In this document: one piece after another, positions 37,418 to 42,578 of the stretch
Layout: each line of letters starts with the position of its first letter
How positions within the stretch are numbered: position 1 is the stretch's first letter
Source of the DNA: an uncultured bacterium
GTDB taxonomy: Bacteria > Bacillota_I > Bacilli_A > RF39 > UBA660
Length of the DNA stretch: 44,031 nt
Direction of reading: 5' to 3'
Assembly: GCA_949291455.1 (NCBI GenBank)
Contig: CASEVQ010000011.1
Span: 1-44,031, forward strand
Notes under the pieces: generated by a model
The model's database searches: none
The model's input: only the letters and a program-made list of their open reading frames with translations
What the model was told of the DNA's origin: nothing
Translations under genes and position numbers: made by a program

Positions 37418-38566
37418 ATGCTTAGATTGAGAACTAAAGATGAAAAAATAGATGTTACTTCATTAAATGAGCTTATTAGGATTGGCAAGTATTTGTTAAA
37501 AATTCTTTTTGTTGTTAGTGTTGCTAGTTTAATATTTTTGGGAAGTTATCTTTTGAAAGATTGGGGAATATTAAGAGGTATATTGAATATTTTAAAAATA
37601 ATATCACCATTTTTTATTGGCATTATAATAGCTTGGTTACTTGACCCAATTGTTACTTTTTTACAGAAAAAGGGTGCGGGTAGAGCAATAAGTGTTGCTG
37701 GAGTATTTACTGTATTTATATTTTTAATTATATTGTTTTTTTGGATGGTTATACCTACTTTGGTTGATCAATTACAGGATGCAATTGGTATAGTTCCTAG
37801 TATTGTTGATAACATGAATAATTGGATTGATAATTTGTTTAATGATTTAAATAATTTATATAATTATGATTTTTCTAGTATTCAAGCAAATATTTATTTA
37901 GCATTTGAAGAATTTAGCACTTCTATAACTGTTGGTCTTCCTACAATCTTAGTAAATGCTGCTTCAAATATAATATCTGGAGGATTAAATGTTATTATTG
38001 GCCTTTTTATTGGATTTTATATGCTATTTGATTTTAATAATGTTAGAAAAGAGTTATTAAATTTTATTCCTAAAAAAGCTCACAGCGATACTATTGAGTT
38101 AACGGATAGACTTAATAATTCATTGAAAAGTTATGTTCAAGGAACGTTATTTGTAACTTTAATTTTATTTACAGTACAGTCAATTGGTTTTACTTTAGCG
38201 GGATTAAAAGCTCCTGTAGTATTTGGGTTAATTTGTGCTATTACTAATATTATACCTTATGTTGGACCGTATATAGGTGGTGTTCCTGCAGTCGTAGTTG
38301 GTTTTACAATAAGTCCACTTGTTGGATTACTTTCTTTAATTGCAGTTGTTGTATCACAATTTTTAGAAAGTTATGTTTTAACACCTGTTGTTATGAGTAA
38401 AACAATGAAATTACATCCAGTAACGATTATTATAGGATTATTAATATTCGGTTATTTCTTTGGTATTTTGGGAATGATTTTATCAACACCTATAATTTCG
38501 TGCTTAAAGATAATATTTAATTTTTTCGATGAAAAATATGAATTTTTTGAAAAAATTCAAAATTAG
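37418..38566 (+). CDS. AI-2E family transporter
   Basis: A 382-aa polytopic membrane protein with seven or eight hydrophobic segments: about 25-45, 60-80, 90-112, 170-200, 240-265, 268-300, 305-330 and 335-365. A long extracytoplasmic amphipathic stretch runs from about 115 to 165. Family features include the N-terminal IISPFFIGIIIAWLLDPIV, the SLKSYVQGTLFV segment, NIIPYVGPYIGGVPAVVVG, and VLTPVVMSKTMKLHPVTIIIGLLIFG near the C-terminus. AI-2E proteins export autoinducer-2 in some bacteria, act as Na+/H+ antiporters in others, and are mostly uncharacterised. It has its own promoter and a perfect AGGAGG site. No luxS or lsr gene is present to argue for AI-2. Confidence 0.92.
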   Translation: MLRLRTKDEKIDVTSLNELIRIGKYLLKILFVVSVASLIFLGSYLLKDWGILRGILNILKIISPFFIGIIIAWLLDPIVTFLQKKGAGRAISVAGVFTVFIFLIILFFWMVIPTLVDQLQDAIGIVPSIVDNMNNWIDNLFNDLNNLYNYDFSSIQANIYLAFEEFSTSITVGLPTILVNAASNIISGGLNVIIGLFIGFYMLFDFNNVRKELLNFIPKKAHSDTIELTDRLNNSLKSYVQGTLFVTLILFTVQSIGFTLAGLKAPVVFGLICAITNIIPYVGPYIGGVPAVVVGFTISPLVGLLSLIAVVVSQFLESYVLTPVVMSKTMKLHPVTIIIGLLIFGYFFGILGMILSTPIISCLKIIFNFFDEKYEFFEKIQN

Positions 38567-38668
38567 TAATATACAATTTAATATTTTAATAGAACTTTTG
38601 TTAGAATATAATGATGTTCGTAGAAATTTGATCCTATGTTTTGGGTCTTTTTCTATAAAGGAGAATTT

Positions 38669-39895
38669 ATGAAATTATATTTAATATGTGGGAAAGCTCG
38701 TTCTGGGAAAAATACTTTAGCAAATTTATTAAAAGAAAATCTAGAAAAGTATAATAAAAAAGTGTGCCTTTTAAAAATAACTTCGCCACTTTATTTGTAT
38801 GCGAAAGAATATTTTTCTTGGGATGGAAGTGAAGATAATAAGCCTAGGTCACTTTTGCAATATTTAGGAATAGATTTAATAAAGAATAAATTAAAAATGA
38901 ATAATTTTTTAATTAATCGGCTTAAAGAAGATATTAAAATTTTAAGTGAATTTTTTGATATTGGTATTATAACTGATGGAAGATTAAAAGAAGAATTAGA
39001 TGAATTAAAAAAAGAATATAATGATATAATAATAATTCATATAGAAAGAAAAAACTGTGATAATGGTTTAACAATTAAAGAAAAATCTCACATTACAGAA
39101 ACTGATTTAGATTTTGGATATAATTATAACTATTCTATTTCGAATGATAATATATTCAATTTAAAATTAAAAGTACAGGATATAGTAAAAAAGGAGGAGA
39201 ATTTTATGAATTATAAAATAGCAATAGATGGGCCAAGTTCATCTGGAAAATCGACGATAGCAAAATTGTTAGCAAAAAAGCTTTCTTTTGTATATGTTGA
39301 TACTGGTGCGATGTATCGTGCAATGGGGTTATATTTTATTAGAAATAAAATTTCTTGTGAAGATAAAGAAAGTATTGAAAAAGAATTGTCTAATGTTAAT
39401 ATAAATATTAAATATGAAAATGGTGAACAACAAATTTATTTAAATGATGAAAATGTTACTAATTTAATTAGAACTGATTTAGTATCAAAATATGCTTCTG
39501 TTACTAGTACTTATTTAAAGGTTAGAGAAAAGCTTGTTGCTATGCAGAAAGATTTAGGTAATAAAAATAATGTTATTATGGATGGAAGAGATATAGGTAC
39601 TGTGGTTTTACCTGATGCAACATTAAAAATATATTTAACTGCTACACAAGAAGAAAGAGTAAAAAGACGCTATAAAGAATTAAAAGAAAAGGATAGTAAT
39701 ATATTAAAAGAAGATGTTGAAAAAGAAATGATAGAGCGTGATTATCGTGATTCACATAGAGATAATAGCCCTTTAAGGAAAGCTGAAGATGCAATTGAAG
39801 TAGATACAACATATTTAAATATTGAAGAGGTTGTAGATGTTATTTTAAAATTATTTAATGAAAAAAGAGGTAATTGCAATGAAGAAATTAAGTAG
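38669..39895 (+). CDS. Fusion of a P-loop (deoxy)nucleotide kinase-like domain with cytidylate kinase
   Basis: One uninterrupted frame of 408 codons encodes two kinases. Residues 1-178 form a P-loop domain with Walker A G8KARSGK14NT, a TDGRLKEELDELK segment and IIIIHIERK. It resembles phage-type deoxynucleoside monophosphate kinases or dephospho-CoA-kinase-like proteins, but I cannot fix the substrate. Residues 180-408 are a complete Cmk: AIDGPSSSGK194ST, VDTGAMYRA, MDGRDIGTVVLPDA and the RDYRDSHRDNSPL loop. The start is ATG 38669 with AAGGAG 6 nt upstream; the longer frame from 38636 lacks a site. No stop separates the domains, but a perfect ribosome binding site and ATG lie at the junction. 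The alaS start overlaps the end by 17 nt. Confidence 0.85.
   Translation: MKLYLICGKARSGKNTLANLLKENLEKYNKKVCLLKITSPLYLYAKEYFSWDGSEDNKPRSLLQYLGIDLIKNKLKMNNFLINRLKEDIKILSEFFDIGIITDGRLKEELDELKKEYNDIIIIHIERKNCDNGLTIKEKSHITETDLDFGYNYNYSISNDNIFNLKLKVQDIVKKEENFMNYKIAIDGPSSSGKSTIAKLLAKKLSFVYVDTGAMYRAMGLYFIRNKISCEDKESIEKELSNVNINIKYENGEQQIYLNDENVTNLIRTDLVSKYASVTSTYLKVREKLVAMQKDLGNKNNVIMDGRDIGTVVLPDATLKIYLTATQEERVKRRYKELKEKDSNILKEDVEKEMIERDYRDSHRDNSPLRKAEDAIEVDTTYLNIEEVVDVILKLFNEKRGNCNEEIK
39206..39895 (+). CDS. cmk: Cytidylate kinase (internal in-frame start of the fusion)
   Basis: From ATG 39206 the frame encodes 229 aa, the normal length of Cmk, which phosphorylates CMP and dCMP. AAGGAGGAG at 39191-39199 is an excellent ribosome binding site 6 nt upstream. 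It encodes KKEE of the fused protein, so an independently translated Cmk is likely in addition to, or instead of, the long product. All catalytic segments lie within this part. It is listed separately because the sequence cannot tell which product predominates. Confidence 0.8.
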   Translation: MNYKIAIDGPSSSGKSTIAKLLAKKLSFVYVDTGAMYRAMGLYFIRNKISCEDKESIEKELSNVNINIKYENGEQQIYLNDENVTNLIRTDLVSKYASVTSTYLKVREKLVAMQKDLGNKNNVIMDGRDIGTVVLPDATLKIYLTATQEERVKRRYKELKEKDSNILKEDVEKEMIERDYRDSHRDNSPLRKAEDAIEVDTTYLNIEEVVDVILKLFNEKRGNCNEEIK

Positions 39896-42578
39896 TACAG
39901 AAATTAGAAATATATGGTTAGATTTTTTTAAATCAAAAGGACATACAGTTATAGAGAGTGCATCTTTGATTCCAGAGGATGATGATAGTTTGTTTTTTAT
40001 AAATGCTGGAGTTACACCATTAAAAAAATATTTTGATGGAACAATTGTACCTGATAATAAACGTCTAACTAGTATTCAGAAATGTATAAGAACTAATGAT
40101 ATAGAAAATGTAGGAGTTACTAAAAGACATCAGACTTTTTTTGAAATGATGGGTAATTTTTCAATAGGTGATTATTTTAAAGAAGAAGCTTTAGAATTTG
40201 CTTATGAGCTTTTAACAAGTGTTGATTATTTTGATATTCCAAAAGATTTATTATATGCTACTATTTATATGACTGATGAAGTAGCATATAACAAATGGGT
40301 AAGTCTTGGTTTAGATCCTAGTCATATTGTTAGACTTCCCGGTAATTTTTGGGAAATTGGTAGTGGACCATGTGGACCGGATTCAGAGATTTTCTTTGAT
40401 CGCGGAGAAAAATATGATCCAGATGGAACTGCGTTAGTAAAATTTAAAAATGATGAAGAGCAAGAAAGATTTGTTGAAATTTGGAATAATGTTTTTAGTC
40501 AGTATAATTCAGAACCGGGGGTAGATAGAAGTCTTTATAAAGAACTTCCTCATAAAAATATAGATACTGGTGCAGGTCTTGAAAGATGGTGTTGTATTTT
40601 TCAGGGAGTCGATTCTAATTTTGATACAGATTTATTTGTACCAATAATTAAAAGAATTGAAAGTATTTCTGGTAAAAAATATAATGGAGAAGTTGCATTT
40701 AAAGTTATTGCAGACCATATTAGAGCAATTACTATGGCATTGTCTGATGGTGCTATATTTGAAAATAGTAACAGAGGCTATGTACTTCGTAGATTACTGC
40801 GTAGAAGTGTAAGAATGGGAAGAAAACTTGATATTAATGAACCATTTATGTATAAATTAGTTGATGATGTTGTTGAAATAATGAAAGATTCATATCCTAA
40901 ATTATTGGATACAAAAGGGTTTGTAAAAACATTAATATTAGATGAAGAAAATTTATTTAATGATACATTAAGAGCAGGTGAGAAAAAACTAATTGAGCTT
41001 ATAAATGAATCAAAAGATGGAACAATTAGTGGATATGATGCTTTTAAGTTATACGATACTTATGGATTTCCATTTGAACTTACTGTTGAATATTTAAATG
41101 ATGAGAATATGACAGTTGATGAAGAAGAATTTAATAAATACATGGAAGAAGCCAAAAAAGTAGCTAAAGAGAGTAGAAAACAAGAAGCTAATATGAATAT
41201 ACAAAATGAAGAATTATTATCTTTTGTTGCACCAAGTGTATTTTCTTATGATGATTTTGAGCTTGATAATTGTAAGGTCATCGGAATTTTTAAAGATGGA
41301 AAATTTGTTAATGAAATAAGTGATTATGGATATGTTATTTTTGATAGGACTTGTTTTTATGCTGAAAGTGGAGGTCAAGTTAGTGATATTGGAGCAATTA
41401 AAAATGATAATTTGAAAGCTAAAGTTTTAGATGTAAAAAAAGCTCCTAATGGACAACATTTGCATAAAGTTGAAATTATTGAAGGGACATTAAGAGTTGA
41501 TGATTTATGTATAATGAAAATAATGGATGAGCGCAGGAAAAAAATTAGAGTTAATCATAGTATGGTTCATATTATTCAAAAAGCTTTACAAGATAATTTA
41601 TCTTCTACTATAAAGCAAGCAGGTAGTTATGTGGATGATGAAAGAATGCGCTTTGATTTTACTTTTAGTGGAAAAATATATGATGAAGATGTAATTAAAA
41701 TTGAAAATAAAGTTAATGAGATTATTAAGGAACATTTAAAAACAGAAATATCTAATATGAGTTTAGAAGAAGCAAAAAGAATGGGTGCAATGGCATTGTT
41801 TTCTGATAAATACAAAGATGTAGTTAGAGTTGTTAAAATTGGAAGTTCTATAGAATTATGTGGAGGTACACATATAGAGTCAACTGATGAAATTGAAAAG
41901 TTTGCTATATTAAAAGTTGAATCAAAAGGAAGTAACTTATATAGATTAGAAGGATGTACTAATGATATGGTACCTATTCTTATATCAGAAGCAGTTTCTA
42001 AATATGTAGAAGAAATTAAAAAACTTTTAGAAAAAGCAAATAATATAATAAATTTAGCAGAAAAAGAAAATATTTCTTTAGATTTTAATGTTATCTTTGA
42101 TGAAAGAGGAGTAAATTCATATCAAGATATTATCTATAATAAAAATCAATTAGAGTATATTCAAACAGAGGTAAGAAATTTAGAAAAAAAATATAATGAA
42201 GAAAAAAGTAAAAAGATAAGTTATGATTTAGATAAATATTTAGATAAAAAAATAAAGATAAATGAAATTGATACTATTATAATGCAAACTTCTAATATTG
42301 ATTTAAATGTTTTAAAGGATATTTGCGATAAATTAATTAATAATATGAAAAAAGGTATTGTATTTTTTGCTAATGTTAGAGATAAAAATGTTAACTTTGT
42401 TTGCAAGTGTAGTAGTGATATAAATCTTTCTGCTGGTCTTCTTGTAAAAAAAGCTTCAATAATGGCAAATGGAAATGGTGGTGGAAGTGCTACTTTTGCG
42501 CAAGGTGGAGGCACTACTATAAACAATTTAGATAAGGTTTTAAAAACAATAGAGAATGATATAAAAGAAAGTAATTGA
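39879..42578 (+). CDS. alaS: Alanyl-tRNA synthetase
   Basis: Charges tRNA-Ala and edits mischarged Ser and Gly. At 899 aa it is full length. The class II catalytic core begins LSSTEIRNIWLDFF and includes SLIPEDDDSLFFINAGVTPLK, CIRTNDIENVG, TFFEMMGNFSIGDYF and NIDTGAGLERW. The editing domain retains H560-x3-H564 (NHSMVH, with Met-Val where Ala-Thr is common) and C661-x3-H665 (CGGTHIES). A helical linker and the C-terminal DHHA1 domain follow (NGNGGGSATFAQGGG). ATG 39879 with AAGAGG 8 nt upstream is chosen over ATG 39858, which has no site. It overlaps the end of cmk and is probably co-transcribed. The stop is TGA. I see no T-box in front of it. Confidence 0.97.
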   Translation: MKKLSSTEIRNIWLDFFKSKGHTVIESASLIPEDDDSLFFINAGVTPLKKYFDGTIVPDNKRLTSIQKCIRTNDIENVGVTKRHQTFFEMMGNFSIGDYFKEEALEFAYELLTSVDYFDIPKDLLYATIYMTDEVAYNKWVSLGLDPSHIVRLPGNFWEIGSGPCGPDSEIFFDRGEKYDPDGTALVKFKNDEEQERFVEIWNNVFSQYNSEPGVDRSLYKELPHKNIDTGAGLERWCCIFQGVDSNFDTDLFVPIIKRIESISGKKYNGEVAFKVIADHIRAITMALSDGAIFENSNRGYVLRRLLRRSVRMGRKLDINEPFMYKLVDDVVEIMKDSYPKLLDTKGFVKTLILDEENLFNDTLRAGEKKLIELINESKDGTISGYDAFKLYDTYGFPFELTVEYLNDENMTVDEEEFNKYMEEAKKVAKESRKQEANMNIQNEELLSFVAPSVFSYDDFELDNCKVIGIFKDGKFVNEISDYGYVIFDRTCFYAESGGQVSDIGAIKNDNLKAKVLDVKKAPNGQHLHKVEIIEGTLRVDDLCIMKIMDERRKKIRVNHSMVHIIQKALQDNLSSTIKQAGSYVDDERMRFDFTFSGKIYDEDVIKIENKVNEIIKEHLKTEISNMSLEEAKRMGAMALFSDKYKDVVRVVKIGSSIELCGGTHIESTDEIEKFAILKVESKGSNLYRLEGCTNDMVPILISEAVSKYVEEIKKLLEKANNIINLAEKENISLDFNVIFDERGVNSYQDIIYNKNQLEYIQTEVRNLEKKYNEEKSKKISYDLDKYLDKKIKINEIDTIIMQTSNIDLNVLKDICDKLINNMKKGIVFFANVRDKNVNFVCKCSSDINLSAGLLVKKASIMANGNGGGSATFAQGGGTTINNLDKVLKTIENDIKESN

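What the first reader, a model, noticed from the sequence alone, without database searches (positions are those of the whole stretch)
38669..39895. Unidentified P-loop kinase fused in frame to cytidylate kinase, with a perfect internal start
The sequence shows a single open frame holding two Walker A motifs (GKARSGKNT and GPSSSGKST). The second half is a full Cmk. The first half looks like a small nucleotide kinase of unclear substrate. At the junction, AAGGAGGAG and an ATG are placed as for a free-standing Cmk, so one frame may yield both a bifunctional kinase and Cmk alone. Cmk is known in fusions with other proteins in some bacteria (for example RpsA or PanC), but I do not know this pairing. 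The N-terminal kinase could act on dNMPs or a related salvage substrate, giving a coupled nucleotide step.
Basis: partly seen in the sequence, partly recalled or inferred. Interest (0 to 1): 0.62.

Follow-up and report, generated by a model that had tools for sequence, protein, structure and literature searches.

The report
Phage-type dNMP kinase fused to Cmk
In one uncultured gut bacterium a phage-type nucleotide kinase gene has run into the neighbouring cytidylate kinase gene, probably by a one-base change; the fusion itself looks accidental, but across the bacterial family three different kinases take turns in this operon slot, which suggests that they can do one another's job.

Summary
In detail: 38669-39895 is one 408-codon frame holding two complete P-loop kinases. 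The N-terminal half (38669-39205) is identified: a deoxynucleotide monophosphate kinase of the phage T4 gp1 type (PF21448, phrog_139; fold match 1DEK), with nearly all T4 substrate-binding residues kept. The C-terminal half (39206-39892) is a full Cmk with its own Shine-Dalgarno and ATG.

The fusion is not a conserved architecture. In 15 other loci with both genes they overlap by a few bases in different frames; only this genome has them in frame, and one A fewer in the A6 run at 39187-39192 would give the usual ATGA overlap. dnk-alaS and cmk-alaS fusions occur in relatives at the same locus.

The larger finding is the slot. Between an AI-2E permease and alaS, relatives carry dnk, cmk or a UPF0200-type kinase, alone or as dnk plus one. 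Of 242 family genomes 131 have dnk alone, 20 cmk alone, 16 UPF0200 alone; cmk and UPF0200 co-occur once. Within-genus swaps and decayed dnk copies beside cmk suggest partial interchangeability. I infer that dnk covers (d)CMP phosphorylation in Cmk-less relatives. Substrate, fusion protein and the A-run are untested.

The parts
38669..39205 (+). dnk: T4 gp1-type deoxynucleotide monophosphate kinase domain, 179 aa
   Evidence: PF21448 3.2e-12; phrog_139 8.8e-26; profile hit to 1DEK 2.6e-13; AlphaFold2 pLDDT 95.4, best PDB fold match 1DEK 6.9e-8
39206..39892 (+). cmk: complete (d)CMP kinase, 229 aa, with its own ATG; stop TAG 39893-39895
   Evidence: PF02224 6.7e-73; TIGR00017 244 bits
39191..39199 (+). 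internal Shine-Dalgarno AAGGAGGAG for free-standing Cmk
   Evidence: read directly; nearly the same sequence stands before cmk in the nearest relative G009
39187..39192 (+). A6 run at which dnk and cmk come into one frame; one A fewer gives ...TTA TGA, an ATGA overlap with the cmk start
   Evidence: G009 has A5 here
38657..38663 (+). Shine-Dalgarno AAAGGAG before the dnk start
   Evidence: read directly
38567..38668 (+). leader in which relatives carry a T-box; here only the terminator-like end (38630-38653) is left
   Evidence: T-box RF00230 in L003 and L030; none in the window; alignment with G009 and absence of the antiterminator core
37418..38566 (+). AI-2E family permease, conserved upstream neighbour
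   Evidence: PF01594 2.9e-60; same position in relatives
39879..42578 (+). alaS, conserved downstream neighbour; starts inside the cmk 3' end (longest frame from 39858; 39879 is the inferred start)

Best explanation
The frame is two kinases of one tight operon (permease-dnk-cmk-alaS) joined by a small indel. The first is a T4 gp1-type dNMP kinase that is widespread in the family. In other species its stop overlaps the cmk start out of frame; here one more base in an A-run puts them in frame. Ribosomes starting at 38669 should make a 47 kDa fusion with hardly any linker, and ribosomes starting at 39206 should make free Cmk; both products are inferred. The dnk domain is still functional (shown only as selection). 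In the family, dnk, Cmk and a UPF0200-type kinase replace one another in this slot, so I infer that they share a task, most likely phosphorylation of CMP and/or dCMP; in Cmk-less relatives dnk would do it alone.
For: Family and fold of dnk. T4 substrate residues R132, Q136, D175, R177, E181, H206, T208, E209 correspond to R60, Q64, D103, R105, E109, H141, T143, E144 (residue roles from PMC10653934). Separate overlapping genes in all 15 other dnk+cmk loci measured, never in frame; one A fewer restores that state. Slot swaps read on both sides: dnk against UPF0200 in genera g17, g78, g147, g154; cmk against UPF0200 in g1, g13, g67, g75, g98, g120, g138; by genome content also g70 and g79 (cmk against UPF0200) and g63 (dnk against cmk). 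Counts in 242 genomes: dnk only 131, dnk+UPF0200 32, dnk+cmk 15, all three 1, cmk only 20, UPF0200 only 16, none 27; dnk against cmk odds ratio 0.21, p 4.6e-5; cmk against UPF0200 0.094, p 0.003. Decayed dnk beside intact cmk in G009 and G020. All 23 sampled genomes of other families of the class have Cmk. Tmk is found in 191 of 242, so dnk is not a general Tmk replacement. Precedent: a T4-type dNMP kinase replaces Tmk in Pseudomonas putida KT2440 (PMC10653934).
Against: Sixteen genomes keep both dnk and cmk, so the two are not simply exclusive. About 18 genomes have an alaS with readable upstream DNA but none of the three kinases, so the shared task is either dispensable or has a fourth solution. 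[quoted passage not shown] only the T5 relative is said to take all four dNMPs (PMC10653934). The counts are not corrected for a species tree. The window's dnk stays intact next to cmk, which implies some non-redundant use there.
Confidence: 0.6

Rival explanations
1. The fusion is an artefact: a one-base error in the A-run of a metagenome assembly, and the real genes overlap as ATGA.
For: Only this one genome shows it; the difference is one base in a homopolymer; one A fewer gives the overlap typical of relatives.
Against: A6 is short for a short-read error; in-frame fusions of neighbours at this locus occur in five other genomes, so such events happen here.
Confidence: 0.15
2. The fusion is an evolved bifunctional enzyme that couples dNMP and CMP phosphorylation.
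For: Both domains are complete and dnk is under selection.
Against: No other genome shares the architecture; hardly any linker between the last dnk helix (162-177) and the Cmk start at residue 180; the internal ribosome site is kept.
Confidence: 0.1
3. dnk here is a dying relic that lost its stop because cmk made it superfluous, as in G009.
For: Nearest relative G009 has only fragments of dnk beside cmk; G020 has an 87-codon remnant.
Against: The window's dnk keeps all invariant residues of the family and a stop-free frame that neutral drift would have broken.
Confidence: 0.1
4. dnk serves DNA-precursor salvage (dGMP, dTMP) as in T4 and has nothing to do with Cmk; Cmk is simply dispensable and was lost often.
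For: T4 base-contact residues are conserved; some genomes have none of the three kinases; E. coli can live without cmk (own knowledge).
Against: Same-slot swaps within genera and decay of dnk beside cmk; Cmk is not lost in the sampled genomes of other families of the class.
Confidence: 0.3
5. Ribosomal slippage on A AAA AAG (39187-39193) makes a free dnk as well as the fusion.
For: The heptamer stands in frame, and the -1 frame ends within a few codons (read directly).
Against: No upstream stimulator or stem was seen, and the motif is made by the same run that makes the fusion; not tested further.
Confidence: 0.04

Closest known systems
Phage T4 gp1 deoxynucleoside monophosphate kinase (PF21448, phrog_139, 1DEK)
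   Same: Same family by profile and by fold; phosphate-, pocket- and base-contact residues mostly identical
   Different: 179 residues against 241: the T4 stretch roughly between its residues 47 and 128 is mostly missing; chromosomal operon gene of a bacterium; T4 Asp15 is Asn
PP_1964 of Pseudomonas putida KT2440 (T4-type dNMP kinase replacing Tmk)
   Same: T4-type kinase that takes over a cellular NMP kinase (PMC10653934)
   Different: There Tmk is replaced, in one strain, from a genomic island; here the partner is Cmk, at a fixed operon slot and family-wide, and the function is inferred only
Known Cmk fusions (PanC-Cmk NF010004, AroA-Cmk NF008816, Cmk-Der NF007071)
   Same: Complete Cmk in one protein with another enzyme; these NCBIfam models are hit here only by their Cmk part
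   Different: Other partners; those are established fusion families, this one is seen in a single genome
UPF0200 family (SSO1041, 3H0K; 3LW7)
   Same: The kinase that takes the cmk slot in relatives matches it at 7.5e-20 over nearly full length
   Different: Not in the window; no paper with an assigned substrate was found in the held library

Membership tests
Deoxynucleotide monophosphate kinase (PF21448, T4 gp1 type) | Profile match over the curated cut-off | tested here: met
   47 bits against 27.1; phrog_139 8.8e-26
Deoxynucleotide monophosphate kinase (PF21448, T4 gp1 type) | Substrate-binding residues of 1DEK | tested here: met
   R132, Q136, D175, R177, E181, H206, T208, E209 all have identical counterparts; Asp15 is Asn15; Lys37 and Arg68 not aligned
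Deoxynucleotide monophosphate kinase (PF21448, T4 gp1 type) | Fold | tested here: met
   1DEK is the best PDB match, E 6.9e-8, TM 0.69 by query
Deoxynucleotide monophosphate kinase (PF21448, T4 gp1 type) | Phosphorylates dNMPs | not testable with these tools
   needs an enzyme assay
(d)CMP kinase Cmk (TIGR00017) | Full-length match over the curated cut-off | tested here: met
   244 bits against 135.55, profile positions 1-216 of 217
Phosphomevalonate kinase (PF04275) | Profile match over the curated cut-off (considered for the N-terminal domain) | tested here: not met
   19.3 bits against 33.8
Established bifunctional Cmk fusion | Architecture shared by related genomes | tested here: not met
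   dnk-cmk in one frame only in the window genome
Functional replacement of Cmk | Complementary distribution at the same locus | tested here: inconclusive
   Strong swaps within genera, but 16 genomes have both and about 18 have none

The most novel reading that the evidence does not exclude
In a large family of gut Bacilli three different P-loop kinases (Cmk, a T4-type dNMP kinase of probable phage origin and a UPF0200 kinase) are interchangeable (d)CMP kinases in one operon slot, so that Cmk has been displaced in most species, and the window genome shows two of them joined; this would also give UPF0200 a function.
Probability: 0.45. Interest if true: 0.7.

Novelty: new variant of a known kind. 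Interest (0 to 1): 0.45.

Why it matters
Cmk is present in all 23 sampled genomes of other families of the class, yet most of this family lacks it. If a phage-type dNMP kinase and a UPF0200 kinase stand in for it, this would be a family-wide case of what has been shown for Tmk in one Pseudomonas strain, and it would give a testable substrate for UPF0200, a protein with solved structures for which I found no assigned function. The fusion by itself matters little.

Tried and rejected
Phosphomevalonate kinase for the N-terminal half: below the Pfam cut-off, although the fold is related. dnk as a Tmk replacement: Tmk is present in 191 of 242 genomes. PF13189 cytidylate kinase-like proteins as the missing Cmk: in only 58 of 242 genomes and mostly in frames of about 660 aa. 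A single-protein scan of genome contigs found nothing, the 22-row alignment was too diverse for it, and a 3-row alignment worked. Papers on Cmk displacement or UPF0200: none found in the held library. Reads and other strains were not available, so the A6 run could not be confirmed.

Full report
What is there. Window 38669-39895 is a single frame of 408 codons. Residues 1-179 form a T4 gp1-type deoxynucleotide monophosphate kinase (dnk below): PF21448 at 3.2e-12, phrog_139 at 8.8e-26, profile hit to the T4 enzyme 1DEK at 2.6e-13, and a confident AlphaFold2 model (mean pLDDT 95.4) whose best PDB match is again 1DEK. Residues that a published analysis lists as forming the T4 substrate pocket (PMC10653934) have identical counterparts: T4 R132, Q136, D175, R177, E181, H206, T208 and E209 are R60, Q64, D103, R105, E109, H141, T143 and E144 here. 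T4 Asp15 is Asn15, as in some relatives. Residues 180-408 are a full Cmk, with AAGGAGGAG and ATG placed for independent initiation.

Relatives. The dnk protein is found in 182 of 242 genomes of the same family (three of these are remnants or fragments). With the Pfam model, which is a weaker probe, it was not seen in any other family in a 149-genome sample of the class. Record titles name the carriers only as uncultured Bacilli, Tenericutes or Erysipelotrichaceae and the like; order RF39 is my guess. Phages carry relatives of about 28-32% identity over most of the length, many annotated as the same enzyme, so a phage origin is plausible but not shown.

The fusion. In 15 other loci with dnk and cmk side by side, the dnk stop ends from 1 base before to 20 bases past the cmk start, always out of frame. 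In the window the frames agree because of an A6 run at 39187-39192; with one A fewer the frame ends TTA TGA, the usual ATGA overlap. The nearest relative, G009, has A5 there. Fusions of neighbours also occur at this locus as dnk-alaS (G064, G192, G145) and cmk-alaS (G201, G115). The fusion therefore looks like a private event of a kind common in this tightly overlapping operon. Whether a fusion protein exists is not known.

Is dnk alive here? Synonymous divergence from G009 is 0.45-0.75 (NG86). With 0.2 neutral changes per site no stop-free copy survived in 4000 simulations, and all 14 family-invariant residues are kept. So dnk has been under selection in the window lineage, whereas G009 has lost it.

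The slot. The order is permease, T-box leader, dnk and/or cmk or UPF0200-type kinase, alaS. In 242 genomes of at least 80% completeness: dnk only 131, dnk+UPF0200 32, dnk+cmk 15, all three 1, cmk only 20, UPF0200 only 16, none 27 (cmk counted at E below 1e-40, dnk remnants left out). dnk and cmk avoid each other (odds ratio 0.21, p 4.6e-5), as do cmk and UPF0200 (0.094, p 0.003); these tests ignore phylogeny. Stronger are contrasts within genera at the same place before alaS, read on both sides: dnk against UPF0200 in g17, g78, g147 and g154, and cmk against UPF0200 in g1, g13, g67, g75, g98, g120 and g138. Genome content alone adds g70 and g79 (cmk against UPF0200) and g63 (dnk against cmk). 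Beside cmk, dnk is decayed in G009 and G020. The Cmk tree shows at least two Cmk lineages in the family; the window's belongs with g1, g118 and g75, apart from the main one (a quick tree).

Interpretation. The simplest reading is that the three kinases overlap in function and that the overlap is (d)CMP phosphorylation, because Cmk's function is known. A T4-type enzyme has been shown to replace Tmk in Pseudomonas putida KT2440 (PMC10653934), and the T5 relative is said to act on all four dNMPs. Against it stand 16 genomes with both, and about 18 genomes with a readable alaS context and none of the three. Tmk is present in most genomes. I hold the shared task at about 0.45-0.6 and the identity of dnk as a dNMP kinase at about 0.9.

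Regulation. Most relatives have a T-box leader ahead of this operon (RF00230 in L003 and L030; antiterminator core in most loci). The window has lost it: only a terminator-like end at 38630-38653 is left.

Noticed in passing
L003, L004, L012, L106-L127 and others, between dnk and alaS: A bacterial UPF0200-type kinase (about 185 aa, A3; matches 3LW7 and 3H0K at about 8e-20) takes the cmk slot and swaps with cmk within several genera.
   Followed up: partly
window 38567-38668: The T-box leader that relatives carry before this operon is deleted; a promoter-like TAGAATATAAT and the terminator-like end remain.
   Followed up: partly
L068, L148, L150; L185, L186: In-frame dnk-alaS and cmk-alaS fusions in other genomes at the same locus.
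   Followed up: partly
alaS in L128-L143 against L106-L127: Two kinds of alaS occupy the same place: frames of about 590 aa (about 40% identical to the window's) and of about 900 aa.
   Followed up: no
G009:C7:50954-51442: PF13189 cytidylate kinase-like domains mostly lie in frames of about 660 aa; the G009 copy has four stops inside.
   Followed up: no
L025 1402-1662: In G020 dnk is cut down in frame to 87 codons, keeping the P-loop and the C-terminal part, next to an intact cmk.
   Followed up: partly
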